Assembly: GCA_026874595.1 (NCBI GenBank)
Contig: CM049308.1
Span: 15,932,001 to 15,996,000 of the forward strand
Length of the DNA stretch: 64,000 bases
Reading direction: 5' to 3'
Source of the DNA: Sipunculus nudus
Taxonomy: Eukaryota > Annelida > Sipuncula > Golfingiida > Sipunculidae
Shown here: in pieces, positions 1,733 through 49,429 of the stretch
Layout of the letters: the number at the start of each line of letters is the position of its first letter
How positions within the stretch are numbered: the first letter of the stretch is position 1
Made by a program: the position numbers and the translations under genes
Notes under the pieces: model-generated
The model's input: the letters and a program-made list of their open reading frames with translations, nothing else
Told to the model about the DNA's origin: nothing
Database searches by the model: none

Positions 1733-2960
1733 AAACTAGAATACGGGTAGTCGACAAGCGACTACGTGTATCCGCCGAAATCAGAGTGGAATGGGTGAAG
1801 TGAGGCATGGATTGAGTGGCAAGGGAAAATAGAGTGAGATGTGTTGCATATTAGCATGGATGTCTGCAGCCAAAATGGATATGTAGGTTGTGCCACCTAC
1901 CACAAATGCAGAAAGCTGTCACATAAATGTAGGTGGCGCCACCTGCCACAAAAAAATCGAGAAAGCAATCCAAGATGTATAAACTCGCAAAATCTTTAGG
2001 CAGATAAGTCAAACTACTACAGAGATATGAGTGATTTTAGCCCATGGCAGACAAATAGACGCTGTGCAAAAATTGTTGCATGTGGCCCCTTCAGTTTTGT
2101 GTATGATAAAGAGCTATGTGATATCTATACACATGCAAAATTTTGGCCTAATCAGTGAAAAGGTTCCCGAGATATGAGCTTGGCTGTCTGCAGCATAAAC
2201 TAGAATGTAGGTGGCGCCACCTGTCATAAAATCCAGAAAGCTGTCTAGGATGTATAAACCTGCAAGATTTTAGGTAGTTATGTCAAACCACTACAGACAT
2301 ACGAGTAATTTTATCCCACGGCAGACAAACAGACGGACGCTGTGCAAAAATGGTTGCAGGAGGCACCACCATTTTTAGTGAATGTTATAAAGCTATCCAA
2401 GCTTAGGGCAACATTTGTATAAAATTTTTAGCCTGATTGGTCAAATGGTTCCAGAGATATGTGCTTGGATGTCTGCCGGGTAAACTTGAATGTAGGTGGC
2501 GCCACCTGTCACAAAATCAAGAAAGCTTTCCAGGATGTATACGCATGCTGAATTTTAGGTGGATAAGTCCAACCAATGCAGAGATATGAGTGATTTTATC
2601 CCAAGGCAGATGAACAGATGGACGGAGTTCAAAATTGTTGCAGGTGGCGCCACCATTTTTAGTGTATGTTATAAAGCTATCCAAGGGCTACATTTGTGTA
2701 AAATTTTTAGGCCTGATCGGTCAAACGGTTCCGGAGATATGTGGGTTTATGTGTGGAAACAGATGCATAAATGGACACAGAGCGCAGAGGAAAGGTCAGA
2801 GGTCAAAACAAAATCGGGGCGCAGCAGACATGTGACCCGAACATAATCCCAGGTTTCGTAAAATTCTGCCCAGCGGTTACAGAGGAGTTCTCTGGACACC
2901 TGTGCGGCGGCGGCGGTGGCCGGCTGAAAACAAAACTCTGTTTTGGCGGATACAATAAAT
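1733..2960 (+). mobile_element. F3 pearl-like non-autonomous element
   Basis: The element starts with AAACTAGA (1733-1740). A perfect 7-bp hairpin follows: GTAGTCG at 1747-1753, a 5-nt loop, and CGACTAC at 1759-1765. Next comes the subterminal motif GTATCCGCC (1768-1776). The 3' end carries its exact inverse GGCGGATAC (2945-2953), followed by an A-rich terminus. The core is a tandem array of roughly 280-bp units marked by the palindrome GGTGGCGCCACC near 1931, 2209 and 2494, with a degenerate copy near 1884 and another near 2643. No ORF of credible length exists, so it would need proteins supplied in trans. A short AAAACA/TGTTTT stem lies just before the 3' motif, weaker than the 3' hairpins of F1 and F2. 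The architecture matches pearl-like or Helentron-associated elements; that assignment is from memory. Confidence 0.7.
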
Positions 2961-3769
2961 ACGGTACATACGTTTGTATATTAAGATGTTTTAAACAATT
3001 AACGGTTATACAAAGGTGATGTCTTTAAATTTACTTAATCCTAAAACACTGAAAACTCAAATTTACAATATATTTTATAATTCCGGCTTATTAAACAAAA
3101 GCAATATCAATGTATATTTCTCATAATTTTATGAGCTACACTAGTAAAGTTATGAAAATACAAATAATTAGTTGAATGTAAATAGTATATAATCAGTATT
3201 TTGATGAAATATTATTCATGAGAATGATGTATATATTGTTGATGTTTATATTGTTGATATCAAGTAACTCATTAATTATGTATATATACAATATTCTTAC
3301 TATTGCACAATGTAACTTCGGCACAGTAGCAGGTTTCACTTGTAATAAATTAACAAAATTTTAAATGTATTCATGCAAGATTCTGCCCCTCTGCAGATTA
3401 ATAGCAGGCATAAGTGAATACAAGTAAGTGGCAAAACTTTAAAGTCTAGTCCACTTAATGACTGCTCAATACCAGGTATCCAGACTTGCATCATGTCTTC
3501 AGATCAGGTGTTATGGGAGTAAAGTGCTTTTTTTACTAAAGGCTTGTCCAGTCACGAACAGCCTGTCCAGTGGAGTAAAACCCTTATATGCAAATAAAGT
3601 TGCATAGAGCTGCCAACTTCCTCTCACTAATATATTAGTATGTCACACTTTAAGTTAGGGAAATAGGCACTAAAGAATATGGTCATATTTGTTGAAAACT
3701 AATAGTTAAACTTCAGAACTGGATGAACGTTTTTACTGCTTGGTGGTTACAAGTGTCACTTAAGTGAGG
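2961..3769. other. No feature recognised
   Basis: The stretch is AT-rich with several TA-rich short palindromes. It is presumed intronic or intergenic, and I found no exon signals or arrays. Confidence 0.5.
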
Positions 3770-4006
3770 TCATCTGTGCTCTGACAGGCAGAGCTGACAT
3801 ATGATGTAACCATCAAGTTGGTGAACTGTGACATACATTTCTCTTACTCTTGGCTTGGATTCACATACTTTACATAGAACACACAGAAAAGTTTGATCGG
3901 ATCCTGGAAATATTCCACACCTGGTGATCCAGAATACTGGTGGAGGAAGATATGCAGTCTCTGAGTACTCTCTACTGAAGACTGCATCATTCTTTTTCTG
4001 TGACAT
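3770..4006 (-). CDS. Small ORF with two CxxC pairs, possible zinc-binding domain
   Basis: An ATG-to-stop frame of 78 codons runs on the minus strand. It is not low-complexity and does not derive from a tandem array. The C-terminal half has CVLC, then a further Cys (KVCESKP), and about 30 residues later CQLC followed by LSEH. This spacing would suit a small zinc ribbon or a degenerate B-box-like fold. I do not recognise the family. Nothing upstream looks like a promoter and no splice sites were identified, so it could be an intact small gene, the last exon of a larger one, or an ORF remnant of a mobile element. It lies in a region otherwise free of recognisable repeats. Confidence 0.3.
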   Translation of the reverse strand: MSQKKNDAVFSREYSETAYLPPPVFWITRCGIFPGSDQTFLCVLCKVCESKPRVREMYVTVHQLDGYIICQLCLSEHR

Positions 4007-4369
4007 TATAATATACCCGTCCCAATATCCTCCCTAGCTATTTTATTCAACACTGAATAATTAGTTTTTCTATTTAGCCTTCTCCTCTGTTTTTGATTCA
4101 CAGACCCTTTTAACTTCAATATCAAACTGTTTCCAAGGGCCTGACTAATGATTAAATATAATGATTTAATTAAGTTTAGGCACTTTTTCCAAAAATATTT
4201 AAAGTGAGGTGAGTCACCTCCTGCACTTGGTCTTTGAATTACACATGGTCAGGTTAATTGGATTACGAGAATGACTGACGGGCCATGGAACACAGACCAA
4301 GAAGACTGAACAGATGTTTCCATCACACAAATGAACACAGAAAAGAAAGCTTAAGACACCTGATGGGTG

Positions 4370-4490
4370 GAAAATATCCACACTGTACATAATCAGACTC
4401 ATATGAGTACAACTCTGCTGGTTGGGGTTTGTGGGCATAGAAATCTAAGCCCCACAATGCACCGGGGCTTCTACATACACCAGCGGTGTA
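4370..4490. repeat. Dispersed repeat, copy 1 (pair at 50850-50985)
   Basis: The block contains AACTCTGCTGGTTGGGGTTT and, about 40 bp on, CACAATGCACCGGGGCTTCT. A second copy at 50850-50985 keeps the same order and spacing with scattered substitutions. The pair shows this is an interspersed repeat. No termini were resolved. The ORF at 4214-4438 (minus) overlaps it and is not treated as a gene. Confidence 0.6.
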
Positions 4491-5485
4491 GTAAGTCCAT
4501 CAATCAGTAAAAAAATTTTTGTTTCCAGTTGAGTCTCCTGGTGTCATTTTCTTCTACCTGCCTGCAAATTATGATATTTATGATGAGTGGAACTGAAATG
4601 TGTTAAAATGTGCATTTCAACTTTAAAATCAGTATTGCATGGAGAACATGTTCAAACATGCAAATACCATTGAGCCCAAGCATACTGCAATGTGGTTTTA
4701 TTTGGGTGGTGGATCATGGAAGTTTACACTGAGGAATGTATTGCCATGTGTGGCGTGTCAAAGGATATGCAGAAGAAAAATATTTAAAAAATCTGTTAAC
4801 ATACCAGGGGGTGGGGGGGGGGGATGGAAATGGGATGGGACATCTTAAGTACTTCATTAAATATTTTACTAATTTTTTTTCAAAATGATTAACTTTAAGA
4901 AACAATATTTAAAGTTATTTATGCAACGAACATGGAATCACAATGCCTGAATTTACGTGTATAGTATTATTTATGTTTCAAATAAAATATTGATTCCTGC
5001 ATACAGAAAAATATTAAATATATATACTTAATGTAGAGTAATATTGCATTCTTATTATCACAGCTGCTATCACCAAGGTCAATAGATACCAATCCTGGAC
5101 AGTCCCGTTAGATGCTGCGGTAGAACTGTAACTGCCTGTTAGCATTTTGCCGCTTACGTGAAAATACAATCAAACGTCAACAGTTTTAAAGCCTTCCACG
5201 CATGGGCACTTGTTGAGTTATGTCACATTTTGGTTTCTTTCAGCTGAGTCATAACAGTTTTGTTAATGAAAGTGAAAAGTTTCTTCTTGAAATCTGTTTT
5301 GAATCCACTTCGGCCCAAAAACTGAACTACTAATGAAGGCATAATGAATTTGACTCAAGGGGTTTCAACAAAGTAGCAGAGGCCAAACAAACTACTTTTC
5401 ACAAAGATGACTTTGACCTAGTAATTATGTTCATCTGTTTGTAACACAGTTTAAGGTATGTTAAATGTTGGAAGTTATTTAAAGG
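4491..5485. other. Gap with a G-run, no gene
   Basis: A G-rich run at about 4807-4823 (GGGGG T then 11 G) is the only distinct feature. The rest is AT-rich DNA with no exon or array recognised. Confidence 0.5.
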
Positions 5486-5489
5486 ATGT

Positions 5490-5665
5490 TATATACGTTA
5501 ACAGAGGAAGGATCCTATACCAAACTTTATATGGGGAACTGATAAGGTTCCTATAGAATTCCTATAAGTTTGCTATAAATTCTGATAAGTTACCTGTAGA
5601 TTTCCTTAAAATTTCCCTTAAAAATTCTGAAAAGTTACCTATCAGATTCCTATGAGTTTCCTATA
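5490..5665. repeat. Degenerate short tandem repeat, TTCCTATA-like units
   Basis: Variants of TTCCTATAAG, ATTCCTATAG and AAGTTACCTAT recur about every 20-25 bp. The units are strongly diverged, so the array is probably old. It abuts a possible transposon terminus starting at 5666. Confidence 0.45.
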
Positions 5666-5745
5666 CAGGGTTCGTACACTTATCATGAGAAAAATTTCAA
5701 GCACTTTTCAAGGACCTGAAAAGTATTTTCAAGGACATCAAAATT
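5666..5745 (+). mobile_element. Possible DNA-transposon end, CAGGGTTCGTACAC
   Basis: The 14-mer CAGGGTTCGTACAC at 5666-5679 is followed by alternating 'TTTTCAAGGAC' and 'CCTGAAAAG' phrases. This style is common at the ends of dispersed elements in aquatic animal genomes. A partner terminus was not found nearby. A related but diverged right-hand end (GTGTGCAAACCCCGAAC) lies near 21350. Which transposon superfamily this belongs to is not determined. Confidence 0.35.
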
Positions 5746-8217
5746 TATGGACGGTCAGTGCACCCTACCCATGCATGTTGCCGACATCGAAAGGCTTGTA
5801 ACACAAAATGCAAAATAATATTTATAATGAAATGGACCATATAGTGTGATAAAAAAGGCTAGGAAATGTAAAATAAATAATAGTTATAAGGAAATGACTC
5901 AGAAAATAACAAATTTAGCCGAAATCTACACTAACAGCAATTGAAGCGCTTGTGAAATATCCTTCGGTATAGCCAGTCGCGGTTTAATACACAGTGGCCT
6001 ATTGTTTTAACTTTACATTCAAAATGATCACTCATCTTTGGCATGACCTTGACAGATTTAACTAATCTGATAACGAGGGTCTAAAACCTATAATATCTTG
6101 AAAAGGGATCTCTGATTTGACAACTAGCTCAAACTTTAGCAAATTATATGCTATGGCAGAAAGGGTGCCGAAAAACTCTGACAGTTCGGCGATCGTGGGG
6201 GATATTCATTCAAGTTTTCAATGGCAAAAAAAATAAAAGCCTGTAATATGTTACCCTTATACGATATTTTGGTATAGTATTATCAAATTATTCAAAACAA
6301 TACTAGTCAAACTTCGTATCAGCACGTTTGATATGACGACCTTGTCGTGCACGAGGTTTCTGCCGTTTACCGCCAAGTCACTGGCCGCATGTGTCAACAA
6401 ATGGCCCGGCAACACCTGTGAAGGTTGTTATCTAACGATCACAGACGCAGCCAGATTTCTATTCAAACATATCCAATATTTAATTAGAACTAAAAATGTG
6501 AAATCTTATTTTAAAAAAAAACTGTAAGAGTATGTACCAGCAGGCTTGGTGGACAAAAAGCTGATATATATTAAAGGGCCATTGATGCTGTCATATTATA
6601 TCACCAATCAAAAACTTGGAAAATCTGACAGGTCACACAAAAATTCCTGTAACATCCTTTTATTCCTTAATTGAAGACATCCTGTTTTTTTTTATTTTTT
6701 TTGGTTGAGAAAATATATATTTAACAAAAAAATAAGAATATATGGACACACGAATGTGTAATAAAATGAAGACTTCTCCCATTCATGAAGCAAGTACAAT
6801 ATTTCTTTAAGTTGATAAAGACAAGCAGTCCCAGCAAGACCTCATAAAACATGTTAAACTTATCAGCAAATCTTCACTGAGATCATCTGTAGACAACTTC
6901 AAAAACAGACATCGCAATAGATACCACTACATAAATTGCTCATTTCCTTTTTTTCATTCCACATCTGGGCAGCATTTAAATACCAGAAGCTAGGGGAAGA
7001 CCTGTTTATCCATGAGTACTTCAGGTGATATGCTGTTCCATTTGAGTTTTTTGCACCTTCTGTCTACCTGCATTCAGCTGACATCGCTTGGCTGTAAAAA
7101 CAGGCGTATTTACATGGGTTTTCATTTGCTGCCATGCTCCGTATCAAATTCACTCTTAATCCTGCATGGACTATTTACCTGTCAGTGAAAGTGCATTATG
7201 AATATCTTTGTTCTGGTTTTATCATGCACTTTGATAATTGTTAACAAGTGCCTTATGTCAATAATATGCTCACATTGACAGTTTCCTCTGACGATCTGTT
7301 TCTACATGATGCCAAGTTGCTGGCAAAACAAAACCTATCCCACATATCTAATACTGATGTATCACAGCAGAAGTGTCCAATTGCAAACTACAAAAGCTTT
7401 CTATGCAATAAAAGTAAGTCTGTGTGCAACAAACTACCTGTGGTGATGTGCTTAAGTCCATAAAATGGTTTTGACAAATAAGTTGAGCTGTTCAATGAAC
7501 TAACCGACAGAACCATTGCAGCTTCTAATAAAAGCAGAGAATGATTTCTAAATGTACATAAATGCACAATATCTGCCACTGAAATTCAACTCCACAAACA
7601 CTTCTAAACTAGAAAGCACTGAGAGACCACAAGCCTCCACCAAGCTTTGTGGTACACAAGTGCATTATAAATATATATGAAAAGAAGGTGAGGGAAATGT
7701 GTTTCAAAGTTAACTAACTCAGAGTCAGAGATTATATTCCAGGTTAGTACTGCTCTCAGAACAATGGAAACTCCCATTAGGTCACACCTACATTTGTATG
7801 CAGGGAAAACTAATCTAGTTTGGAAACTTATACTTAAAGTTTGCCCTAATAGTAGTGAATGAAGATGGTATCACCCTCATGCAAGACAATGGTCAAGAAT
7901 CCTTTGAACAAAAACATATGATGATTCAGATATTCTCCAAACTGTAATGGATTGTTTCCTAGGGTCTGGTACAGAAAAACAAACAAACACAACAACAGAC
8001 AAACAGAGAAAATGAGAAACACTGTTCAATATGTATCACATGGCTGAGGTATAATACACAGCAACTTCTGTTATCTGTATAACAGGTGCTGATACTGGAA
8101 ATGATAAAGCTAGCCTGTCTGCCAAGTATTCTGCTTCTCAAATGATCAGAAGCCAAGCAGTTTGAAAGAAACATGCAGGTGTTAAGGGAGCTAGAATTTT
8201 GGAAGATCCAGAACCTA
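5746..8217. other. Gap without recognised genes; CpG-richer patch at 6170-6440
   Basis: Most of this is AT-rich. A patch at 6170-6440 has noticeably more CpG (GGCGATCGTG, CACGACC-type words) and contains a 64-codon ORF starting at 6333 with no recognisable domain. It may be the body of the element whose end is at 5666. No splice-bounded exon was found. Confidence 0.4.
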
Positions 8218-8740
8218 TTAAAGACAAATGATAATTTTTATTCTTTCTGGAGAAATACAGGAAACCTCACCAATCTCTTGTCTTCAGGCAAATGACAAAT
8301 CTCGTTTTTTTCCTATGATATAAAAGAATTAAGATCATTTCAAGGAAAAATGTGAATTTTATTCTTCTAAGGACATATGACAATTCTGATTCTTTCCAGG
8401 TCAAATGCCGGGGGAAAAAATGGACTATTCTGATTCTTCTCAGGACAACTGATAATTCTGAATCTTTCCAGGACTGATGAGAATTCTTATTTTTCCCAGG
8501 ACAAATGAGAATTCTTATTCTTCCTGGGACAGATGGGAATTTGTTTCTCCAGGGACAGACGAGATTTAAAATTCTTCCCAGGACAGATGAGAATTCTTAT
8601 TCTTCCCGGAATAGACAGAATTCTTATTCTTCCCGGGACCAATGGGAATTCTCTTTCTTCTTAGGACATAAGGCAATTCTTCCAGAGACAAATAAGTATC
8701 ATGGTTCTATCTGGGAAAAATGTTCTCATTCTTCTGTGAA
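8218..8740. repeat. Minisatellite, ~29-bp unit (GGACARATGAGAATTCTTATTCTTCC)
   Basis: The core unit reads approximately CCAGGACAAATGAGAATTC followed by TTATTCTT, repeated about 15 times with variable divergence; the best-preserved copies are at 8480-8640. The 148-codon ORF at 8505-8951 is a translation of this array plus downstream AT-rich DNA and is not a gene. A related array, partly in the opposite orientation, is at 39150-39365. Confidence 0.75.
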
Positions 8741-10236: not shown

Positions 10237-10381
10237 AATGTATGTCAATGGCACTTGAAACCATTGCTGTATCCAGCTCTGCTTTAATTAATATCTTAGG
10301 ACTAAGAATGCAGTTTTGGATCCAGATATTCTTAAAATCTTATAAAATGTTCTCTGAACACTGCTGGTCCATATAGTTATA

Positions 10382-10567: not shown

Positions 10568-10569
10568 TA

Positions 10570-14690: not shown

Positions 14691-14694
14691 GTAC

Positions 14695-16178: not shown

Positions 16179-16204
16179 GCGGCTTTATCCCCAGATGGCA
16201 AACA

Positions 16205-17980: not shown

Positions 17981-17984
17981 TTTA

Positions 17985-20715: not shown

Positions 20716-20736
20716 ATAGGTATTTACCACACGTAC

Positions 20737-21095: not shown

Positions 21096-21099
21096 TTAA

Positions 21100-21707: not shown

Positions 21708-24392
21708 AACAAGGGCCCCACAGGTCACGTCCCTCAGCTGAATTTTGGAAAATATTAGTAACTGCAAAATATTTTTATTTCTTATGGTTTTTCCATGTAT
21801 ATTACCATTTGAAAAGCTAAGAGAAAATAGCCCAGCTTAAATGAAACTCTGTAAATTATAGAATAATGGACATGAGCTAAAGCATATGGACTGAGAAATC
21901 AATGAAACTTTTGGCCTGAAACCATTTAGTGATGCACCCAGGGAAAAAATGGGCCTACAGTAAGTGTCATATAAAAATTCCATTTCATAAACAAATAATG
22001 TGTGAAGGTAATTAAGTTTTCAAAAGTTAAATATATGGCCATATGAGTTAAATATTAATCCCACAAAGTTTGACCAATATTCCTAATTTTAAAAACTAGG
22101 TTTAACAGTGTTATTCACACCTAGGCCTGCCAACTTTAAGAGATATATTTATATCTTCTTAAATCTTGTCAGTTAGCACTTACATTAGGTCCTAATATTT
22201 TACCATATTTGAATATTAGGATTAAATTCCTGAACATTTTTTCTTAAAAAAAAATCAAAATTGTCCAAGTCTCAACAAAAAGAATTTTTTTAACATTAAA
22301 ATTATAAGCTTTGTCTTGTATATTAGTCCTGTGTATCGAAGCGGTGGGTCAGGGAAGGGTCTCTGTTGTTACTGTTCATCGCTCAAAAAGTGAAATTATA
22401 AGATTCATTTTGTTTAGAGTACAGGTCTGTCAACATAATGGGGTGGGGGGGGGGGGGGGAGAGAGAGAGAAAGGCTCCCTGTGGTATTTATGCTGGAAGC
22501 CTGATCAAGCTCAACAAGAGAAAGGGCTTGCCCGAGTGATGGGATTACATAACAGCCTGGGGAGCATAGAGAGTTATATTTATGCTAATTACTTTAAAAA
22601 AATTGCAAATTTCAGATCTAATTTTCGGTATACAATTGAATCTTGATTAAATGATGTTATATTCCTGAAAAAAAGTCTCAGCCATTCTTATGTTAAGTGA
22701 GTAAATATATATCCTGATTTTTTACAAGGTGCATTATGTTTGGGCCTATAACTTCAACAAATTATGCAATACTGACCTAAATTTTGGTATGTACATAGGA
22801 AATGTATGGAAGAATATGAATATTTACAATTACATCTAACATTATGCCAATTTTTGGATTACCAGGTAAACAAAAGTGGGGTCATGATGCTAGAAAATAC
22901 AAATACATTATGGCATCTAAAAAACTTCAATAGCTAGACTTTTTTTTAAGCTTATACTTTCAAATTCAAAATTTATCAGATTAAATCCATATGTAAACTG
23001 GCTGTGAAAATTAAATCAAAAGTACTTATAAGAAAAAAACATGCCATGGTCAAATTTAGGCAAAAGTTAAGGTACCAATTTTTTATTTTTGCTAATATTT
23101 TAAAAATTTAACAGATTTTCATCTAATTTTGGGTATACAATTTAATTTTGATTAAAAAAAAAAGTCCATAGCTTTAAAATGTTTTGTGTTAAGTGATCAA
23201 ATATCTTTCCTGATTTTTTACAAAATGCATTATGTTTGAGCCCATAACTTTTTTAAATCATATAATACAGACCTATTTTCTGGCATGTACATAGGAACTA
23301 TATAGAGGAATATCTATGGTAAATATGAAGAAAAACAGATGAGTGGTTTTGATATTAGGCAGTCCTGAAGTGTGAAAATAGGTTTTTAATAAAAAATTGA
23401 GGTTTTTCCTTAATTTCTCAAAGGAATGAAGTCACAAAGACCCAGTTTTCAGCTTGGTAGGAGATCTTGGGGACATCTAACATTATGCCAACAACCTTGG
23501 GAGCATAGAGCGCTGCACTGAATGACCAACAGGGACCACAGTGGACTTCTAACATTATGCAAACATCTAACATTATGCCAACAACCTTGGGAGCATACAG
23601 AGCTGCACTGAATGACGAACAGTGACCACAGTGGACTGCTTGACAATGTAAGGGAATACAACAAGAGCCTCCAAAAAAATTCAATAACTAGCCTAATTTT
23701 GCAGCTTTTATTTTCAAATTTAAGATTTTAACAGATTAAATCTTTATTTGTACATGCTGTGAAAATTAGATCAACAGTACTTACAGGAAAAAAACGTGCC
23801 ATGGTCAAAGTTGGGCAAAATTTAAGGTACCAATTTTTTATTTTTTGTTAATATTTTAAAAAGTTTAACAGATTTTGATCTAATTTTGGGTATACAATTT
23901 AATTTTGATTAATTAAAGTTATATTACTGGAAAAAAGTCCATAGCTTTAACATGTTTTGTGTTAAGTGATCAAATATCTTTCCTGATTTTTTACAAAATG
24001 CATTATGTTTGGGCCCATAACTTTTTTAAATTATATAATACAGACCTAATTTCTGGCATGTACATAGGAACTATATAGAGGAATATCTATGGTAAATATG
24101 AAGAAAAACAGATGAGTGGTTTTGATATTAGGCAGTCCTGAAGTGTGAAAATAGGTTTTTAATAAAAAATTTAGGTTTTTCCTTAATTTCTCAAAGGAAC
24201 AAAGTCGCAAATACCCGGTTTTCGGCTTGGTAGGAGATCTTGGGGACATCTAACATTATGTTGAATTTTGGATTCCTAGGTCTTACGGTTTCAAAACGTG
24301 CCACATCTACGGACGGACGGACGGATGGACGGACAGACGGACAATGGACCACGACTATAGCTCAGATGACTTATAGTCAGCTGAGCTAAAAA
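21708..24392 (+). mobile_element. F1 pearl-like element, copy A
   Basis: The 5' end AACAAGGGCCCCACAGGTCA is followed by CCCTCAGCTGA. The 3' end has (ACGG)n at 24309-24343, then GGACAATGGACCACGACTA, then a 13-bp stem: TAGCTCAGATGAC at 24358-24370, loop TTATA, and GTCAGCTGAGCTA at 24376-24388 (one mismatch). It closes with AAAAA. The interior holds three repeats of a core unit aligned on GCATTATGTTTGGGCC at 22731, 23227 and 24000. The middle unit is interrupted by a separate 90-bp tandem duplication. No ORF is plausible as a transposition protein. The DEP-encoding exon ends only ~90 bp from its 5' end, so the insertion is within the adjoining RGS intron. Confidence 0.8.
23474..23640. repeat. 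90-bp tandem duplication inside F1 copy A
   Basis: ACAACCTTGGGAGCATA and CACTGAATGAC occur at 23491 and again at 23581, exactly 90 bp apart, with each copy ending CCACAGTGGACT. This block is absent from the corresponding place in the other F1 copies in the window, so it was gained by this copy. The minus-strand ORF here is a repeat translation. Confidence 0.75.
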
Positions 24393-30929: not shown

Positions 30930-33551
30930 AACAAGGGACCTATGGGTCACGACGCTCAGCTGTTATATATGATAAAAAAATATTATTTAGAAATGAGGCA
31001 CATGCTGGTTTTGTGTGGTAATAAATATAAGCTGTAGTATGAGTTGTTGTTGTTTAGCTTATGTATGATTTTGATAGTACCTTTGGAGACAGGGAAGAGG
31101 ATTGATTTCATTTATTTTATTAACAAATGGAGTACTATTGTCACACAGATTTTGACTTGGCCATATAACTTATAAGCAGAACATATAATATAAGAGTTTA
31201 ACTATTTATTAAAAAAAATTACAAATATTGTCCCAAATATAATTTTTATAAAAAAATAATAAGAGAATCATATGATTTTTTTAAATGAAATATAACTGAT
31301 ATGATTATTAAAATAATATTAAAGAATATATTCATGAATGCATTCATGAATACATTTTGAAAGTTTTTGCACGAGTATTCATATACTTTCATTTTTACCT
31401 AAATTCCTATTCCTTATGCAAGAAATTTTATAATGGAGTACATAATCATATTCGTATTTAAATACAATTACAAAGTATTCGCACCATGTCTGGTATTTAT
31501 TCAGTTTCACCAACCAATGATGTTGAGAATCCAGGATATACAAAATTCACACATTTAAATAATGATCATAAGTACCTGGTTTTATGGCTTTTATTTATAT
31601 TAAAAATAACTGTAAAAAATTCATTTTGGACTAATTTCACATCAATGTACACACTAGACACAGTAGGAATCTAGATTAATATTATCAACTGCATCTTTGT
31701 CTATCATTAATTTCCTTCATATGATCCCTAATGATTAGTAATGAATAATATGATTTACTTCTTTATCATTAAAATTGAACTGAAAAATGCCATAGGTGAC
31801 TGCATGGTGTTATTTGGAATATGTGACATTCTACTCATCGATACAAGATTCTTATATCATCAGTAACTGCAAGTTAATTTCCTGTTATTATAAACTAACA
31901 AATTCCTTTTCTATTTTTCTTTAATTTGTTATTAAAAACCAATAAAAATTTATTAATTTATTGTTTATTGTTATGTTGTTGGTTAAAACTACTAGATGAG
32001 TTGGGTTGGACACCTGGATCAACTGTGGCTGGCGTTAAGCTGCCTGGATGCCTCGCCTCAAGCGTGCATAATTTGATGAAAAGTCAACAAGGTCAACATA
32101 CAGGTGACTCAAGAGGGGCTGGAGAGAGCCAAAGTCTGACAGGGTCTCATAAAAAACATTAATAAAAGCTACAATTTTTGGCCAATTTCTTTCAGCTTTC
32201 TACACTAAAAAGCTGAAATCCTAATGTGTGCATGATATGAAAATTATATCAACAGTGCTCACAGGACACAAACGTGCCATGGTCACAGTTGGGCAAAATT
32301 TAAGGTACTAATTTTATATTTATACTAATAACTTATAAAATTTGAAAAATTCAGAACTAATTTTGGGTATTCAATTGAATCTTGATTAAATAATGTTACA
32401 TCCCTGACAAAAAAATCTCTAGCTTCAGCAATGCCCTTGTTAAGGGAGTAAATATATTTCTTGATTTTTTACAAAGTGCATTATGTTTGGGCCCATAACT
32501 TAAAACAATTACGCAATACTGACATCATTCTGGCATGTGCATAGAGAATGAAAAATATGTATATTATTTATGATTAAAGTCAGATCAGTGGTTTTGATAT
32601 TAGGCAGTCTTGAAGTGTAACAATGGGTTTTTAATGGAAAAATGAAGTTTTTCATTAATATCTCGAAGGTATTAAGTCCTAGTGACCAAATTCTTGGCAT
32701 GGTAGGGGATTTTGGAGACATCTAACTGTATGCCGAATTTAAGGAACTAAGAGCTGAAGCTGGGGAGCTGAGCTCTTGCAAACTGCATAACACTAGCTTG
32801 ATGTAAACAATATGTTATATGGTGCTTGAAAACTTATTAAAATCTACAGTTTTTGATCAACTGGTTTCAAATTTTTGGTGTTAACAGTTGAAATGCTAAC
32901 AAAAACATGCTGTGAAAATTAAATCCACAGTACTTATAGGGAATAAACGTGCCATGGTCAAAGTTGGGCTTAATTTAAGGTACCAATTTTTTATTTTTAT
33001 TAATATTTTAGAAAATTTAAAAGATTTTCATCTAATTTTGGGTATACAATTTAATTTTGATTAATTAAAGTTATATTACTGGAAAAAAGGTCGATAGCTT
33101 TAACATTTTTTGTGTTAAGTGATCAAATATCTTTCCTGATTTTTACAAAATGCATTATGTTTGGGCCCATAACTTTTTTAAATTAAATAATACAGACATA
33201 ATTTCTGGCATGTACATAGGAACTATATAGAGGAATATTTATGGTAAATATGAGGAAAAGCAGATGAGTGGTTTTGATATTAGGCAGTCCTGAAGTGTGA
33301 AAATAGATTTTTAATAAAAAATTGAGGTTTTTCCTTAATTTCTCAAAGGAACGAAGTTGCAAAGACCCAGTTTTCGGCTTGGTAGGAGATCTTGGGGACA
33401 TCTAACATTATGCCGAATTTTGGATTCCTAGGTCTTACGGTTTCAAAACGTGCCACATCTACGGACGGACGGACGGACGGACAGACGGACGGACGACGGA
33501 CAATGGACCACGACTATAGCTCAGATGACTTATAGTCAGCTGAGCTAAAAA
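30930..33551 (+). mobile_element. F1 pearl-like element, copy B
   Basis: The 5' end is ACAAGGGACCTATGGGTCAC followed by GACGCTCAGCTG. The 3' end has (ACGG)n at 33461-33501, the same 13-bp TAGCTCAGATGAC..GTCAGCTGAGCTA hairpin and AAAAA at 33551. The 5' 1.2 kb (TTATATATGATAAAAAAATA onward) is unlike that of copy A but nearly identical by eye to 57087-59717. The 3' half has two core units aligned on GCATTATGTT at 32478 and 33152. A 78-codon ORF at 31926-32162 recurs at 58082, but its middle is frameshifted relative to that copy, so it is not under evident protein constraint. Confidence 0.85.
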
Positions 33552-39365: not shown

Positions 39366-39499
39366 TATGTATTGTTAGTTGTCCCTGTATCGATATATAG
39401 ACAATATTAGATCACCAAATAATTGTTTCAAAGCACCATACAAGACAAATCTTATCATGAGACAATGTATCCTTACAGCAATAATATACAATATGTTTG

Positions 39500-41545: not shown

Positions 41546-42939
41546 CATTCACTGAAGCTGATATCTACACTGGCTCTGGAATGTCTTGATCATAATGCCC
41601 TACAGAGGTCATCCAGTGCACAGCAATCATTACTGTCAAACAATGTAGACCATTAATGACCTGTGGATAGGCATGGCAAATATCATGACATTACTGTTCC
41701 ATGTCGAAATGACCTAGCTTCAGGGGAACAAGATGATGATCAGATTTAACTTAAATATTTTGTTAATTTTATGGAAAATAGATCTGATGAACGACACATA
41801 TCCACCCTGCTGATCACATGTTGATATGCATACCCAGTTGTGCATCAGGTCAAGCACAAGTTTCCTTAAATAATTTATTAATTTCTGTAACAAATAAAGA
41901 TGTGTCATGAGAACTATATATCATGGTCCACCTGATTCAAGTGCATGCATATGAACCTTCAAAAGTGTGACATATCAGTTCAAAGAAAAAATGACCATAT
42001 TTAACTAAAATTTGAAACAGCTAAGGTTCTCCAATTAGTATAACAGCCACACATGAACCCTAAAAATTGTGTCAAATGTGTTACTGATGAATTCCATTAG
42101 GAAGCATCTGTAACTGAGGTGAATTGATAACATTAGCTAGTTCGGACAAAATGATACACTAAAATAAACAAATAATAAAAAAAGCAGTAATTTTGAGGAA
42201 AATGGTATGTTCAAAAAAACAAATTTAAGTTGTAGAGTTAAAGTGGAAGTCGCTCACCTGTTGATCTGGCAAGTCGCAGTACTGCCACACCTCGAGACAA
42301 CGCCAGCCCATACAAAGGGGCACCTTGAAAGCTTACTAAATAATTGATGGCTGGTCTGGTCTATTTTTCTTCAAGCTTCCATGCCATTTTCTCTTAAGCT
42401 AATCAGGTACAGTGGTAGAACCCCAACACATTACCACCTAAAAACCAGCCTCACACCATATAAGGAGTTCGCTGCATATACATAAGTTGTATTACCTCAC
42501 AATTACAAGAATATTCATAAGTTGCATTACCTCACATTACCATCCAGATAACAACTAGCACCTGCACATATGTCATATAAAGAAATAAATAATCTTTAGT
42601 CTAACATCTAATAACAGTAGAATTTGTACACTGCCACCTGCATACAATTAAACTTTGATGAACAAAAGCCTTATAAAAAAAATACAAAAAAATTGAAATC
42701 CTATGTCCAACAGTTCCATAACTCACAAAACTATCAAGAAGTGAATGTCATTATGCAAATACAGACCTAAATTTGTAAACTTAGTTGTCCATTTAAAATT
42801 TAAAACCACTAAAAATTAACTTTTTTACATTTATGAAACCACAGAAGATCAAACTGCCCCTGAATAAAATGTAAAACATATACCTACCAGATAATTAACA
42901 CATTATCTAGATTGACAAAAATCTTGAGAAAAAAATTAA
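41546..42939. other. Gap; weak exon candidate at 42258-42323
   Basis: On the minus strand, 66 nt between a possible acceptor (GCTTTCAAG) and a donor CAG|GTGAGCG is open in all three frames; one reads through PLCMGWRCLEVWQYC. I could not choose a frame or family, the polypyrimidine tract is weak, and GGTGAGCGAC is a word I associate with molluscan repeats, so I do not call a gene. The rest is AT-rich. Confidence 0.3.
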
Positions 42940-43290
42940 TGGACAAAATGCCGAACATCTTAGTGATTTTCATCCAAAGCAAAGGCACTGATGGACACTA
43001 CATGAAAATGACTGCAGATGGTGCCATCAGTCTTTAGCACAAGATATCCAAGATCTATAGAAATGCACAATTTCAGCCTAATACATCAAACCACTCCTGA
43101 GATATTTATAAGCTATTATCACTAAAAAAGGCACACAGATGGACATCAGTTCAAATGTGGCTTATAAAGGTGTCAGGTTTCAGAAGATTCTGTCCACTGC
43201 TGTCTCGATGAGAGGAGTTCTCCGGAAATGAATGCTATGGTGGCACCGGAGGAAATGTTTGGACAGATACAATTATTCCACAACACTAAT
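42940..43290 (+). mobile_element. Relic of an F3 element
   Basis: GATGGACACTACATGAAAATG, GATGGTGCCATCA, GAGGAGTTCTCCGG and the end TTTGGACAGATACAATTATT align in order with the F3 element at 1733-2960 (GAGGAGTTCTCTGG and TTTTGGCGGATACAATAA). The core is reduced to about one unit and the 5' terminus is not recognisable, so this is an old, truncated copy. Confidence 0.6.
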
Positions 43291-43379
43291 GGTTATTATT
43301 TACATTAATTAAAAGGCACTTAGCTCATGTAAATTCCAAATAAAATATCCACATTTATGCCAGTCAAACATCCAATTTT

Positions 43380-43960
43380 CAATCTGTGGATATTCTATCT
43401 GTTGTGTCCAGTGGCCCCTTGTGTGTGATCATTACATCTGTTGGCACATTGTCTGTGGATTTTATGTTCTTTGGCATTTTCTGTGTTGACATTTTGTCCT
43501 GTAACCTTTCATGTATGGACATCAATTATGTCTTGTTTAACTCTGTAAATGGTAAATATGGCCTGTGGTATTTTGTGTGTGGACATTGTCCTGTCATTTT
43601 GTGGGTGGACATTGCTTGGACTATGGATATTTTCTCCTGTGTGTTTTTGAGGATGGACATCAGGTTCTGTGTCATTTTGCACGAGAAGATTATGACTTGT
43701 GTCAGGATGTTCTATAGCATTTCTGTGTGGAAATTATATCCTGTATCATTTTGTATATGGACATTTTGTCCTTTACCATTTTGTATGTGGACAGTTTGTC
43801 CTGTATCCATTTGTATGTGGACATTTTGTCCTGTATCATTACGTGTCATTTGATATTTTGTGTGGGCATGTGATATGTGTTATTTTGAACTTGGACTATG
43901 TCATGTTGTGCATATACATAAAGCCTTGTTTCATATTGGGTATGGAAATTAAGTCCTGTG
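43380..43960. repeat. Minisatellite, ~33-bp unit (GTGGACATTTTGTCCTGTATCATTTTGTAT)
   Basis: About 17 diverged units run through the stretch; the best are at 43750-43840, where TATGTGGACATTTTGTCCTG repeats every 33 bp. The 155-codon ORF at 43386-43853, the longest in the window, is a translation of this array, as its recurrent FCMWTFCPV peptide shows. Confidence 0.85.
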
Positions 43961-45058
43961 GCCTTTATTGTCCCCATTGCAAACCTTTCTTCTGTGCTAC
44001 ATCGTTAAGGCCTGACGACTCTTTCAAACTGAACCACCTCCCAAGGGGAAATGTATTTTGATGTCTGCCTGCCAGGGTAAAAGCCAGGCACAAATAAACC
44101 TGGTAAAAAAACAGCAACTTCAGAATCACAAAAAGACTGAAACAGAAAACAAGTGGCCCAGTGATGACTTATGACAGCTTGCTAAGTCATGAATCTTGCT
44201 GGAGTCACAGGATTAATGACCGCATGTACAGTATGGGAATGCCAGGTCTGCAGTTCTAAGGGACCAGCATCTGTTCTGGTCATGGTTTATATCTATAGCG
44301 ATCTGTTATGCCCTTTTTTTATTCTTTTTGTTGGGCCACCTGGGTTACGCCCAACCATGGATCATGGTACTGTGCTGGAAAATGGAAAAGTGGCTTCTGT
44401 GTTGTTCTTAATATGAAAAAGTAGCTTTTCCTAGTAATTTTCCATATGATACTTTGTTTTAGGATTTAAGAATAATACTGATATATAGTAAAATTGCCAT
44501 CTATATCAAATTTAAAACATAATTTCTGCAGTTACAATTAACTAATTTGAAATATTACCTAAATTTGGGTAAAGATGACAAGACAAGTATATTATAAGGA
44601 TGACCGTATGTTATTATTGATAACTAAACTGGTACTCTAGCTCTTGATGGCTACACCTTCAAAATTAACATTCTGCCATGCATTTAAAAATAAATAAAAA
44701 GCTTTGTGTCTCAAATTTAATGGTACAGCAAATTTTAAAATTTAAACAAATAGCCCATGGGCCATAGCAATCAGCTAGCTGACTTATATGAATTTGAGTT
44801 TTTTTTAATAAATATGTACAAACTAGAAGCATAAAAAATCCCTTGCCATATGTTTAACTAAGAAAGTGTTGCATCAGTGATGCCCTTATATCCCAAAACA
44901 GTGGCCAGAACCCTTTTAAAATTAAAACAGATACAAAATACAAACTAGGTTGTGTTGTTATTTTTCTACATATCCAGGTATCACTGTTTTTGACTAAGAG
45001 AAATGAGTTATAATAACCAACAAAGATCTGAACAAGCTACCAAAGTGCCTGGTCTTAC
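43961..45058. other. No feature recognised
   Basis: AT-rich DNA. ORFs at 43699-44061 and 44189-44416 either derive from the minisatellite or lack motifs. Confidence 0.45.
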
Positions 45059-45079
45059 CTTGACACAAATATTGTCCAT
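45059..45079 (-). CDS. Candidate 7-codon first coding exon of the RGS gene
   Basis: On the minus strand, AGCATGG (A at -3, G at +4) starts a 7-codon frame, MDNICVK, ending at the consensus donor AAG|GTAAGACC (45051-45058). It ends in phase 0 on Lys, which suits the RGS exon at 21619, whose first codon is Met in phase 0. In the vertebrate RGS7 protein the segment before that Met ends in Arg-Lys. The link would require a ~23-kb intron containing two F1 copies. The evidence is only the donor, the Kozak context and the phase; seven codons cannot be recognised by homology. Confidence 0.25.
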
Positions 45080-45443
45080 GCTAATGGGTAACAAAACAAA
45101 CAGTGAAACTGAAAATTCTGTTGCAGCATATATCCAAAATAGGCGGTTGTCATGGTTGTGACCAAGAAACATGCCTGTAATATTTTATGCTAACAGCTCC
45201 AGCTGTTGCTGGGATATTTGGTACCTGATTTTACATTAGTTATGCAAACACCTGTACTCATAAAACTGTTTGATTGGTATCATTTGTATTTGCTTTCTAG
45301 TCAAAAACATTTATTTTTTCTTTGCTCTAAGACCAATTAGTTGGCCATGATATAAAAGCTTAATACTATTCAGGAATACGCAGAAAATACAATTTCACCT
45401 CACAGCTAGAGTAAACCAACAACAGGTGGCGCTATCTTCAGGT
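45080..45443. other. No feature recognised; possible upstream region
   Basis: Contains CCAAAATAGG (CArG-like) near 45133. If 45059-45079 is a first exon, a promoter could lie here, but nothing decisive is visible. Confidence 0.25.
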
Positions 45444-47134
45444 AACAAGTGATCCATGGGTCATGACGCTCAGCCGACTGACATGTTGACAATATGTCCT
45501 TGACAGGAAACTAATTAAGATAATATAGGTGGCATCATCATTCATGCATATTAGTTTAAGTTCTTCAAGACCCATTAGCACACCAAATTTGATGACAATC
45601 CAACCAGCCTTTCCTTAGGAACCTGGCAATTTGTGTGTATTTTTCATTACTTATAGGATGCTCAAACATACCCCAAAACTCTGAGAATATAGGTCACAGT
45701 GACCCAATTTCAGGTTTTGTGGGGAGAACTTTTGAAGAATTCTCAGGATGCCAAGTGAGAAGATTCTTGGTCCAATGGTTATCATTTATGCTCTACTTTG
45801 GTATCAAATTTTCAAATATTTTGGGGTGTACCTTTAAGCCCCATTGCTCAAAGATTATGGGTAACAGAGACCTAATTTCATGTTTCCATGGAGACTTTTC
45901 ATGGACCTCCCTGGATTTTAAGTAAGAAGATTCTAGGTCCAAGGGTTATAATTTGTGCCCTGCTTTGGTTTAAAATTTTCAATTATGCTAGATGTGCTTA
46001 TAAGCCCCATAGCTCAGATAATATGGGTAACAGAGACCTAATTTCAGGTTTCCAAGGAAATTTTTCATTGACCTCCCTGCCCTGATAACAGACGGCCGCA
46101 TCTTTGAAGGTCTCAAAAATAGAGAGAAAATGCATAAAATTAGATTAAATCCAGGTGACGCCACCAGTCTGCAAGAACTGATGAAACACTCCATGATGAA
46201 AATGCATGCAACGAATCATGGCAATCAATGCACAATTTATTGAGATACTAGAGCTTTTGTATCAAATTTTTAGTTGTTCTTGGGTGTACTTAAAAAAGCC
46301 CTATAGCTCAGAGATTATGGGTAACAGAGACCTAATTCCAGGTTTCCAATGGGCCTCCCTGCAGGTCATGATAGAAGATTCCAGGTCCAGTTGTTATGAT
46401 TTATTCCCTGTTAACAAATGACTGCATCTTTTAAGGTCTCAAAAATAGAGAAAAAAATTGAAAAAAATAAAAAAATACAGGTGGCGCCTCCTGTCTGCAA
46501 AAATCTGATGAATCACTCCATGATCAATATCTATGCAAAGAATCATGGTGATCAATGCAATAGTTGTTCAGATACTTTAGCTTTTGTATCAAATTTTCCA
46601 TTATTCTGGGGGTACTTCGGAGCCCCATAGCTCGAAGAGTATGGGTAACAGAGACCTTATTCCAGGTGTCCCAAGAGACTTTTCATGGGCCTCCCTGTAT
46701 GTCAAGAGGGAAGATTCTAGGTCCAGTCCTTAGGATTTGTGCATTGTTAACAGATGACCGCATCTTAAGAGGTCTCAAAAATAGAGAAAAAAATTTGTTA
46801 AAATCGAAAAAATACAGGTTGCGCCACCAATCTGCAGAGAGTGATGAAACATTCAATGACCAATATCCATGCAAAAAATCATGGTTATCAATGCATTAGT
46901 TGTTCAGAATTGGAGCTTTTGTATCAAATTTTCCATTATTCTGGGGGGTACTTCGGAGCCCCATAACTCGAAGAATATGGGAAACAGAGACCTAATTTTA
47001 GGTTCCCAAGGAGAATATTCATGGACCTTCCTGCATATTATGAGAGAAGATATTCTAGGTCCAGTTGTAATGACTTGTGCCTTGATAACAGATTAACATC
47101 TTTTAAGGTCTCAAAAATAGGTAAAAAAAATTGT
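45444..47134 (+). mobile_element. F1 element copy C1, 5' end and core, no 3' end of its own
   Basis: Starts AACAAGTGATCCATGGGTCA, then GACGCTCAGCCGACTG. The core is unlike that of copies A, B and D. It is built from units containing AATTTTCAATTATTCTGGGG, AGCCCCATAGCTC and GGGTAACAGAGACCTAATTT, repeated at about 45805, 45974, 46270, 46590 and 46925, with AATACAGGTGGCGCC linkers. No ACGG tract or 3' hairpin precedes the next F1 5' end at 47135, so copies C1 and C2 are head-to-tail. The ORFs at 45635-47096 are array translations. Confidence 0.7.
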
Positions 47135-49429
47135 AAACAAGTGACCCATGGGTCATGACGCTCAGCCGACTGGCATGTTGATAATATGTCCTTGCACAGC
47201 AAACAAATTAAGATAATGTAGGTGGCATCATAGTTCATGCATATTAGATGATGTTCATTAAGACCTATAAGCACATCAAATCTGATGACAATCCATCCAG
47301 CTGTTCCTGAGGAATCTGGCAATTTGTGTGTAATTTGCATTATTTCTGGGGTGCTCAAACATGGCCTGTAACTCAGATAATACAGGTCACAGTGACCTTA
47401 ATTCAGGTTTCTGAGGAGAACTTTAAGGAACTCTCAGGATGTCAAGTATGAAGATTAAGGTCAAATGGTTATGATTTGTGCCCTGCTTTAGTATCAAATT
47501 TTCAATTATTCTGAGGGGTGTTTATTAGCCCCATAGCTTGGAGAATACGGGTAATAGAGATCTAATTTCAGGTTTCCAAGAAGACTTTTCATGGACCTCC
47601 CTGGTTGTGAAAATAGTAGATTCTAGGTCAAATGGTTATGATTTGTGCCCTGCTTTGGTATCAAATTTTCAATTATTCTTGGGGTACTTGTAAGCCCCAT
47701 AGCTTGGAAAATATATGTAACAGAGACCTAATTTCAGGTTTCCAAGAAGACTATTCATGGACCTCCCTGGATGACAAGTAGGAAGATTCTAGTTCCAGTC
47801 ATAATGATTTGTGCCCTGTTAACAGATGATGGCATCTTTTAAGGTCTCAAAAATAAAGATAAACTAGATGTGTCGGAACGACACAAATGCCCCCGCCTTG
47901 GCAAATTAGAAACATTTGTAAAATTTGGAAAATTTTTTAAGTTCAGGAGGTGTCGTATGGTCAAAAGTAGGTCAACAAGGGCAAAATGCAAACTCGATCT
48001 GTAACGGGTCATTATCAAGCAACACACCAAAAATCATGCCAGTATATGCAGGCATTGTGAAAAAAAGTCCATACATGTGCATTTTCCATAAAAATTTCTG
48101 TCTTTCATGAAATTTTCTATGTTTAGGAGCCGTAAAACAATCAAAAGTAGGTCAACAGGGATGAAACACAAACTCGATCTGTAACTGTCATTATCTGCCC
48201 ACACAAAAAAAATCAGGGTGGTATCTGCAGGCATTGAGAAAAAGAGTCCATACATGTGCACCTTTTTATGAAATTTTCTGTTAGAGCACCGTCAAACGGT
48301 CAAAAATAGGTCAACTGGGACAAAACGTTAACTTGATCTGTAACTGGTCATTATCTGCCAACACACCAAAAATCAGGCCAATATCTGCAGGTATTGTGAA
48401 GAAAAGTCTGTACAAGTCTATTTGTCATGAAAATATATATTTTACATGAAATTTTCTATGTTCAGGAGCCGTAGAACGGTCAAAAGTAGGTCAACTGGGA
48501 CGAAACGCGAACTCGTTCTGTAACTGGTCTATATCTGTCCACACACCAAAAATCAGGCCAATATCTGCAGGCACTGCGATAAAAAGTCTGTACATGTGTA
48601 TTTGTCATGAAATTTCATATTTTTCATGAAATTTTCTATGTTCAGGAGCCGTAAAACGGTCAAAAGTAGGTCAACCAGGACGAAACGAGAACTCTATCTG
48701 TAACTGGTCTATATCTGCTCACACACCAAAAATCAGGCCAATATCTGCAGGCACTGCGAAAAAAATTCGTACATGTGTATCTGTCATGAATATTTCTATT
48801 TTTCATGAAATTTTCTAATTTTAGGAGCCGTAAAACGGTCAAAAGTAGGTCAACCGGGACGAAACGCGAACTCGATCTGTAACTGGTCTATATCTGCCCA
48901 CACACCAAAAATCAGGCCAATATCTGCAGGCATTGCGAAAAAAAAGTCCGTACAACTGTTTGATTTCGGAAGGACGGAAGGACGGAATGATGGACATGGG
49001 TAAAACTATATGCCCCGGCCACTTTGTGGCAGGGGCATAAAAATCGTAAAAATTGAAAAAATACAGGTGGCACCACAAGTCTGCAGAAACTGATGAAACA
49101 CTCCATAAACAATATCCATGCAAAGATACATGGTGATCAATGCATTAGTTGTTCAGATACTTGAGCTTTTGTATCAAAATTTCCATTATCCTGGGGGGGG
49201 GGGGGGTTCTTTGAAGCCCCATAGCTAAAATGATTTGGATAACAGAGACCTAATTTTAGGTTTCCAAGAAGACATTTCATGGGCCTCCCTGCCTTTAAGA
49301 AAGAAGATTCCAGGTCCAGCGGTTACGATTTGTGCCCTGTTAACAGACAGATGGCCGGATGGCCGGACGGACAATAGACAAAGGGTGATCACTATAGCTC
49401 AGATAACTAACAGTCAGCTGAGCTAAAAA
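47135..49429 (+). mobile_element. F1 element copy C2, interrupted by an F2 element
   Basis: Starts AAACAAGTGACCCATGGGTC; TGACCCATGGGTCA (47142-47155) is a perfect 14-bp palindrome. The core matches C1. The 3' end at 49350-49429 has GGCCGGATGGCCGGACGGAC, then AGCTCAGATAACTAACAGTCAGCTGAGCT in hairpin form, then AAAAA. An F2 element occupies 47866-49043; the sibling units of the core show the uninterrupted sequence GTCTCAAAAATAGAGAAAA, supporting a secondary insertion. Confidence 0.75.
47866..49043 (+). mobile_element. F2 pearl-like element nested in F1 copy C2
   Basis: The 5' region has AAACTAGA, the hairpin TGTGTC/GACACA (47869-47874 and 47880-47885) and the subterminal motif ATGCCCCCGCC (47887-47897). 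The core is a regular array of about 180-bp units marked by CAAAAGTAGGTCAAC near 47962, 48142, 48301, 48481, 48661 and 48840. The 3' end has GGACGGAAGGACGG (48971 onward), then the stem ATGCCCCGGCCAC (49010-49022), loop TTT, and GTGGCAGGGGCAT (49026-49038) with one mismatch, then AAAAA. The 5' motif matches the 3' arm's inverse at 10 of 11 positions. Sequence is unrelated to F1, but the layout is the same. Confidence 0.8.

What the first reader, a model, noticed from the sequence alone, without database searches (positions are those of the whole stretch)
1733..49043. Three unrelated element families share one end architecture
F1, F2 and F3 have no visible sequence similarity in cores or termini, yet each has a palindrome or hairpin at the 5' end, an adjacent 9-11 bp motif that recurs inverted at or beside the 3' end, a tandem-repeat core of family-specific period and an A-rich terminus. 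F1 and F2 also share a GGAC-type tract and a 13-bp terminal hairpin; F3 has only a weaker 6-bp stem near its 3' motif. F2 and F3 both begin AAACTAGA. Subterminal inverted motifs plus a 3' hairpin fit what is known of Helentron-type rolling-circle elements and of bivalve pearl-like elements. The families may therefore be parasites of one replication system that recognises shape more than sequence.
Basis: partly seen in the sequence, partly recalled or inferred. Interest (0 to 1): 0.75.

Follow-up and report, generated by a model that had tools for sequence, protein, structure and literature searches.

The report
Helentron parasites with matched autonomous partners
Three repeat families with different sequences share one end layout because all three are built like cut-down rolling-circle transposons (Helentrons); for two of them full-length parent elements with matching ends were found in the same genome, for the third none was found in a partial search.

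Summary
The shared end architecture is real but was read backwards. On the minus strand F1, F2 and F3 have the anatomy of HINEs (non-coding Helentron derivatives such as Drosophila DINE-1 and oyster Cg_HINE): 13-14 bp 5' subterminal repeat with an imperfect inverted copy, microsatellite, tandem repeats, 3' subterminal repeat, palindrome, then CTNG and T. The 'AAACTAGA' of F2 and F3 is the complement of that terminus (TCTAG|TTT). Genome-wide the 3' ends occur 7,099 (F1), 4,074 (F2) and 10,484 (F3) times, reversed-pattern controls 0. One F1 and one F2 empty site show insertion into a T run, with at most 2-3 extra bases. Their Rep domains are 31-41% identical, so one shape-reading system is not supported for F1 and F2. 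F3: no partner in 43 sampled Rep loci, sampling incomplete. New members of a known kind; naming partners of tandem-repeat HINEs is the advance.

The parts
1736..2953 (-). F3 HINE-like element: 5' end 2924-2953 (inverted copy lost in this copy), GCC microsatellite, ~285-bp tandem repeats, 3' subterminal repeat + hairpin + CTAG at 1736-1776
47864..49038 (-). F2 HINE: 5' hairpin 49010-49038, GTCC-type microsatellite, ~180-bp tandem repeats, 3' end 47864-47896 (hairpin + CTAG); inserted into an F1 array; T run to 49043
47138..49425 (-). F1 HINE split by the F2 insertion: 5' end 49392-49425, 3' end 47138-47166
45446..47137 (-). further F1 tandem array ending in a second F1 3' end (45446-45474), without a 5' end of its own
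30932..33547 (-). F1 HINE inserted in a 30-bp tandem array; empty site reconstructed
21710..24388 (-). F1 HINE; 3' end diverged (7 mismatches)
56672..61096 (-). two F1 5' ends (59680-59713, 61063-61096) and two F1 3' ends (56672-56700, 57089-57117), probably nested copies; which ends belong together is not settled
44747..44775 (-). weak F1-like 3' end (8 mismatches), possibly a diverged subfamily

Best explanation
F1, F2 and F3 are HINEs: non-coding derivatives of Helentrons that move by rolling-circle transposition. Read on the minus strand each starts with a 13-14 bp 5' subterminal repeat and a nearby imperfect inverted copy (hairpin), then a microsatellite, tandem repeats, a 3' subterminal repeat complementary to the 5' one, a palindrome, and CTNG directly before T. 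Shown: F1 and F2 share both end sequences, and their tandem arrays, with full-length elements that encode Rep, a PIF1-type helicase and a C-terminal endonuclease; one F1 and one F2 copy sit in T runs with no duplication beyond possibly 2-3 T. Inferred: those proteins nick at the T-flanked ends, copy from the 5' end, stop at the 3' palindrome, and move the HINEs in trans because the end sequences match. F1 and F2 are served by two different Helentron groups; F3 is assigned by anatomy only. The common layout is inherited superfamily machinery, not one shared enzyme.
For: Copies with different flanks keep both ends. Genome-wide 3' ends: 4,074 F2 (<=1 mismatch), 10,484 F3 (<=1), 7,099 F1 (exact degenerate pattern); reversed-pattern control 0 each. 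F1 partner: five copies (contigs C17, C5, C10, C1, C9) start at the F1 5' end with different flanks; 3' letters read in C17, C5, C10; six other copies at 94-99% identity stop at query 513-520, CTTG ending at 514 by my arithmetic; F1 core 83.8% identical over 970 bp at the Helentron 5' end. F2 partner: C5 and C3 copies both start at the F2 5' end in different flanks; 3' end 346 bp after the endonuclease frame; 28 of 42 non-self matches stop at query 1101-1111, CTAG ending at 1103 (40 of 674 candidates scored); window F2 85.6% identical over 1,028 bp to the Helentron 5' part. Domains; RGSPH in 14 of 14 aligned Rep domains. Empty sites.
Against: F3: no partner in 43 sampled Rep loci, and its microsatellite is GCC, not GTCY. 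Many sampled windows may miss the terminus; one group (C13, C8, C11 copies) runs beyond 8.2 kb. 14 of 42 non-self matches stop elsewhere. F1's two subterminal repeats match perfectly in only 6 of 27 rows. The two empty sites carry 2-3 extra bases in T runs, so a 2-3 bp T duplication cannot be told from T that belong to the element. Movement in trans is inferred from shared ends. The C5 F2 partner has a broken frame and a stop in Rep. Near both junctions of the C5 F1-Helentron stands AGTGCG, unexplained.
Confidence: 0.9

Rival explanations
1. One replication system serves all three families by recognising hairpin shape rather than sequence.
For: All three have a 13-14 bp 5' hairpin with one consensus defect at stem position 8-9, a 3' palindrome and CTNG before T; F3, with the highest 3'-end count, has no partner found.
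Against: F1 and F2 ends match in sequence two different Helentron groups with Rep domains 31-41% identical; all ten F1-ended Rep domains aligned are 65-99% identical to each other, though for nine of the ten the F1 end was only seen in a downstream window, not tested as the boundary.
Confidence: 0.07
2. They are MITE-like cut-and-paste elements moved by a TIR transposase.
For: Inverted repeats near both ends, no coding capacity, high copy number; DINE-1 was once classed so (PMC2374699, passages). A TT duplication cannot be excluded at the two empty sites.
Against: The inverted repeat is clearly internal at the 3' end; Rep-helicase elements carry the same ends.
Confidence: 0.03
3. They are non-autonomous canonical Helitrons.
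For: 3' hairpin followed by CTAG in F2 and F3.
Against: No 5' TC; F1 ends CTTG in 92 of the first 100 of 7,099 matches (by eye), not CTRR; sites next to T runs; partners carry a C-terminal endonuclease and RGSPH rather than RGLPH (criteria from PMC4067079).
Confidence: 0.03
4. The F1/F2 ends at the Helentrons are HINEs that inserted beside them, so the partnership is only apparent.
For: The F1 Helentrons have a second F1 5' end 0.7-1.1 kb inside the first; nesting is common here.
Against: Five F1 and two F2 Helentron copies begin at these ends in different flanks; many copies stop at the 3' ends; no F1 or F2 core was seen between coding region and 3' end.
Confidence: 0.03

Closest known systems
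Cg_HINE elements of the oyster Crassostrea gigas (PMC7492417: abstract, Results and Discussion read)
   Same: Same modules in the same order: 5' subTIR, complementary IR, microsatellite (GTCY, GTCC, GTCK in several), satellite-like repeats, 3' subTIR, palindrome; T-rich/TT sites; several families unrelated in all modules (their group 3).
   Different: They could not relate any of 10 autonomous elements to their Cg_HINEs; here F1 and F2 have matching Helentrons that carry the same arrays. Sequences were not compared with Cg_HINEs.
DINE-1/INE-1 of Drosophila (PMC2374699: passages only)
   Same: 13-bp subTIRs, a partial or interrupted inverted repeat beside the 5' one, (CCGT)n(CTGT)n microsatellite, variable central repeats, 7-11 nt 3' stem, TT preference.
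   Different: Different end sequences; three families in one 64-kb window here; F3's microsatellite is GCC.
Helentrons and HINEs of a mite, Culex and Drosophila (PMC4067079: abstract, Results part 1 of 3, sections 8 and 9, passages)
   Same: Rep/helicase/endonuclease with RGSPH; ends shared with non-coding derivatives; variable T number at the ends.
   Different: The window F1 and F2 copies are 84-86% identical to the partners, not >95% as in Culex; here the arrays also lie in the autonomous element's 5' part.
Pearl elements, DTC84, MgE of bivalves (as described in PMC7492417; originals not read)
   Same: Short arrays of ~160-bp repeats between conserved ends.
   Different: Not compared by sequence.

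Membership tests
HINE (Helentron-associated interspersed element) | Complementary subterminal repeats of about 11-15 bp at both ends | tested here: met
   3' repeat against the 5' consensus: F2 (11 bp) perfect 12 of 15 rows, one mismatch 3; F3 (9 bp compared) perfect 11 of 16, one mismatch 3, two rows out of register or unrelated; F1 (11 bp) perfect 6 of 27, one mismatch 11, so only loosely met in F1
HINE | Inverted copy (IR) beside the 5' subterminal repeat | tested here: met
   F1 16 of 16 rows kept by my filter; F2 17 rows from 19 loci given, L007 and L043 missed by the ungapped match; F3 12 of 13, and the nested copy L040
HINE | Palindrome downstream of the 3' subterminal repeat | tested here: met
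   F1: 87 A..T and 11 G..C, 2 A..C, 0 G..T among the first 100 of 7,099 matches, counted by eye
HINE | GTCY-type microsatellite in the 5' part | tested here: inconclusive
   present in F1 and F2; F3 has GCC instead
HINE | TT/T-rich insertion without target-site duplication | tested here: inconclusive
   T-rich site met: first base after the 3' end is T in 16 of 16 F3, 13 of 13 F2, 27 of 27 F1 rows; TT in 16, 10, 25 (F1 rows prefiltered for CT). One F1 and one F2 empty site show 2-3 extra bases in the T run, so a short T duplication is not excluded. No empty site for F3
HINE | Non-coding, outnumbering an autonomous Helentron with the same ends | tested here: met
   F1 and F2; not met so far for F3, no partner found
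Helentron (the F1 and F2 partners) | Rep + PIF1-type helicase + C-terminal AP-like endonuclease | tested here: met
   F1 partner: Rep, PIF1, Exo_endo_phos E 3.7e-4 but below Pfam's cut-off; F2 partner: PIF1 and Exo_endo_phos above cut-off, Rep 95.0 bits
Helentron | RGSPH signature of Rep motif 2 | tested here: met
   14 of 14 Rep domains aligned
Helentron | RPA or OTU accessory genes | not tested
   not searched for
Canonical Helitron | 5' TC, 3' CTRR, insertion between A and T | tested here: not met
   5' ends TAGC, ATGC, ATTGTATCC; F1 mostly CTTG; T-run sites
MITE of a TIR transposon | Inverted repeats at both termini | tested here: not met
   the 3' repeat lies some 30-40 bp inside the end

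The most novel reading that the evidence does not exclude
The three copies of the subterminal repeat form a pairing switch that does not depend on the letters. In F1, F2 and F3 the 5' repeat pairs with its neighbour (IR) with one consensus defect at stem position 8-9: F1 mismatch at 9 in 16 of 16 rows, F2 mismatch at 8 in 17 of 17 rows, F3 a one-base bulge in the 13 copies that keep the arm. No stem with that defect mended was seen among the rows scored. At that position the distant 3' repeat restores pairing (F1 26 of 27 rows, F2 15 of 15, read by eye). The 5' repeat could thus swap a weaker local partner for a better distant one, joining the ends during rolling-circle transfer; the shape rule would be what Helentron families conserve.
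Probability: 0.15. Interest if true: 0.65.

Novelty: new member of a known kind. Interest (0 to 1): 0.45.

Why it matters
Tandem-repeat HINEs are abundant in oyster and are thought to spread satellite-like repeats, but there their autonomous partners could not be named (PMC7492417). Here two families with different ends are each matched to a Helentron group, and those Helentrons already carry the family's tandem array at their 5' end. That makes the origin of the arrays and the specificity of end recognition directly testable. The single defect kept in the 5' hairpin is a concrete, cheap hypothesis for how Helentron ends are handled.

Tried and rejected
Search for an F3 partner: downstream windows of 43 Rep loci besides the F1-partner loci C17:35630192 and C5:42912065 (5, 18, 20; nine extended). 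An F1-type 3' end was seen in 15, the F2 3' end in 1, an F3 3' end in none; 27 gave no known 3' end. One window (L090) holds an F3-like 5' end with 2 mismatches, taken for an F3 insertion, not followed up. Many windows may miss the terminus; a boundary search for the C13/C8/C11 group ran off the query. C5:42912065 was first sampled too far inside and again.

Generic terminus finders: one search gave one chance-like repeat in C13a, an F1 end and one unassigned hairpin-CTTG in L032 (not followed up), an F1 end, nothing, 15 rows, all F1, F2 or F3 (some overlapping), against 1 in six simulated 64-kb single strands. Rfam and ARAGORN on the window: nothing. ORFs of 130 aa or more in the window: two, not examined further. 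Text search for four end motifs: one unrelated chitinase paper. A first pattern search with two AAACTAGA was uninformative. The two F1 palindrome classes are subfamilies, so their paired changes are few events, not many. Row filters: F1 5' rows had to carry C at position 9 (to drop the same hairpin read on the other strand), so a change of that C would have been missed there; the unfiltered list shows none that I can see.
Full report
WHAT IS THERE. F3 lies at 1736-2953, F2 at 47864-49038, and F1 has five hairpin ends and seven ends of the other kind. All are on the minus strand. The same thresholds gave two hits, both for the F1 3' model, in 20 simulated windows. F2 sits inside an F1 array.

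ORIENTATION. Read on the minus strand, each family has the order known for HINEs: 5' subterminal repeat, short loop, imperfect inverted copy, microsatellite, tandem repeats, 3' subterminal repeat, palindrome, CTNG, T. F1: TAGCTCAGCTGAC/GTCATCTGAGCTA, GTCC/GTCT microsatellite, palindrome TGACCCATGGGTCA, CTTG. F2: ATGCCCCCGCCAC/GTGGCCGGGGCAT, GTCC-type microsatellite, GTGTCG-TTC-CGACAC, AT, CTAG. F3: GTATCCGCCAAAAC/GTTTTGCGGATAC, GCC microsatellite, GTAGTCG-CTTGT-CGACTAC, CCGTATT, CTAG.

CONSERVATION AND COPY NUMBER. I fetched 15 F2 and 15 F3 loci, the best of 79 and 56 listed matches (40 candidates scored each). The 3' end was recognised in 13 of 15 F2 and 15 of 15 F3 loci, the 5' end in 15 of 15 (L007 with a deletion) and 13 of 15. 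One of 16 F3 3' rows ends CTAT instead of CTAG. Whole-genome counts of 3' ends are 4,074 for F2, 10,484 for F3 and 7,099 for F1, with 0 for the reversed patterns.

TARGET SITES. After the 3' end the next base is T in 56 of 56 rows (F3 16, F2 13, F1 27); TT follows in 16, 10 and 25. Before the 5' end F2 has five T in 14 of 14 rows; F3 has no T run there but a fixed T two bases before ATTGT. The F2 copy in the F1 array and the F1 copy in the 30-bp array near 33.6 kb have paralogous empty sites in the window. Joined flanks align through the junction with two to three extra bases in the T run (F2 against two of three units tried; the third aligned less well) and two for F1, with further small gaps. 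There is no longer duplication, but a short T duplication cannot be told from T of the element. No empty site was available for F3.

AUTONOMOUS PARTNER OF F1. A search for Helitron_like_N gave 143 matches. At C17:35630192 an open frame of 2,342 codons is followed about 1 kb later by an F1 3' end. Searching with the last 514 bp plus 226 bp of flank, six further copies at 94-99% identity stop at query 513-520, where CTTG ends at 514. Upstream, C5, C17, C10, C1 and C9 all begin at the F1 5' end; alignments among them start there and the bases before it differ by eye. 3' letters were read in C17, C5 and C10 only. The element is about 16.1 kb in C5. Its first 2 kb are an F1 array, 83.8% identical over 970 bp to window 46136-47088. 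A second F1 5' end lies inside this array in all five, and an F3 copy sits at the same place in the C17 and C5 copies. C10 carries a second F1 3' end just downstream of the first. Pfam finds Rep, PIF1, DUF6570 and an endonuclease match below its cut-off.

AUTONOMOUS PARTNER OF F2. Of 23 downstream windows scanned one, at C5:20308942, held the F2 3' end. It lies 346 bp after an endonuclease frame, with no F2 core before it. Of 42 non-self matches 28 stop at query 1101-1111, with CTAG ending at 1103; 14 stop elsewhere. Two copies (C5, C3) start at the F2 5' end in different flanks; the C5 copy spans 12.4 kb. The window F2 is 85.6% identical over 1,028 bp to the Helentron's first kilobase. So F2 looks like the Helentron's 5' part plus its 3' end, with the coding part missing.

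ONE SYSTEM OR SEVERAL. Fourteen Rep domains were aligned: ten F1-ended, two F2-ended, two without a known end. F2-ended ones are 31-41% identical to F1-ended ones; F1-ended ones are 65-99% identical to each other; C13b (end unknown) groups with F1; C11 (end unknown) is nearer F2 (47-53%). No tree was built. For nine of the ten F1-ended loci the end was only seen in the downstream window and could be a separate insertion. With that reserve, ends follow enzyme group in this sample, which argues against a single shape-reading system for F1 and F2. The similar layout is what PMC4067079, PMC7492417 and PMC2374699 describe for the superfamily.

F3. No F3 3' end was found downstream of 43 sampled Rep loci. 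Some windows end before the terminus; one group continues past 8.2 kb. F3 is a HINE by anatomy only.

A REGULARITY WORTH TESTING. In all three families the 5' stem carries one consensus defect at position 8 or 9 from the outer end, kept in 16 of 16 F1 rows, 17 of 17 F2 rows, and as a bulge in the 13 F3 copies that keep the arm (a few rows carry further mismatches). The 3' repeat lacks that defect in F1 26 of 27 and F2 15 of 15 rows, although in F1 its inner two bases vary between subfamilies. Copies within a family are not independent, so this is three observations; DINE-1 is also described as having a partial or interrupted inverted repeat. I offer a pairing switch as a hypothesis.

LITERATURE. 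PMC7492417 states that ten autonomous oyster Helentrons could not be related to Cg_HINEs. Four paper searches on the topic listed no title or abstract start that names such partners in bivalves; of the bivalve papers listed I opened PMC7492417 and read passages of PMC11136912 and PMC12628747. PMC7992393, PMC8268682 and PMC10294476, which mention Helentrons, were seen in listings only. Most subscription papers and all preprints are outside the library.

Noticed in passing
window 1932, 2210, 2495, 2643; 46154, 46480, 46817, 49066: The 12-bp palindrome GGTGGCGCCACC (exact in the F3 places, one to two mismatches in the F1 ones) recurs in the tandem units of F1 and F3.
   Followed up: partly
window about 31700-32351 and 57850-58507: Flank and F1 repeats of two regions 26 kb apart are near-identical (97% over 300 bp; flanks by eye), suggesting a segmental duplication.
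   Followed up: no
L047 (C10): An F1 Helentron with two F1 3' ends in tandem, as if copying had read through the first terminator and stopped at the next.
   Followed up: no
L024: F3's CTAG is followed by tt and then directly by the F2 5' end: an F2 element inserted at, or read on from, the F3 terminus.
   Followed up: no
L071:2900-4175: 17 of 42 non-self matches begin at query 692-693: copies sharing only the last ~415 bp of the F2 Helentron, pointing to another non-coding derivative family with F2 ends.
   Followed up: no
L046 and L048 (C5 F1-Helentron flanks): AGTGCG occurs near both junctions of the C5 copy; chance, or an unexplained short duplication.
   Followed up: no
L053, L055, L057, L068: A related Helentron group has tandem arrays downstream of Rep, so its 3' ends may lie far away.
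   Followed up: partly
L032, oriented position 3399: An unassigned hairpin followed by CTTG and TT.
   Followed up: no
window 51397-51522 and 52987-53230: Inverted and tandem repeats with CTCGCCTAG-type motifs, apparently a different repeat family.
   Followed up: no
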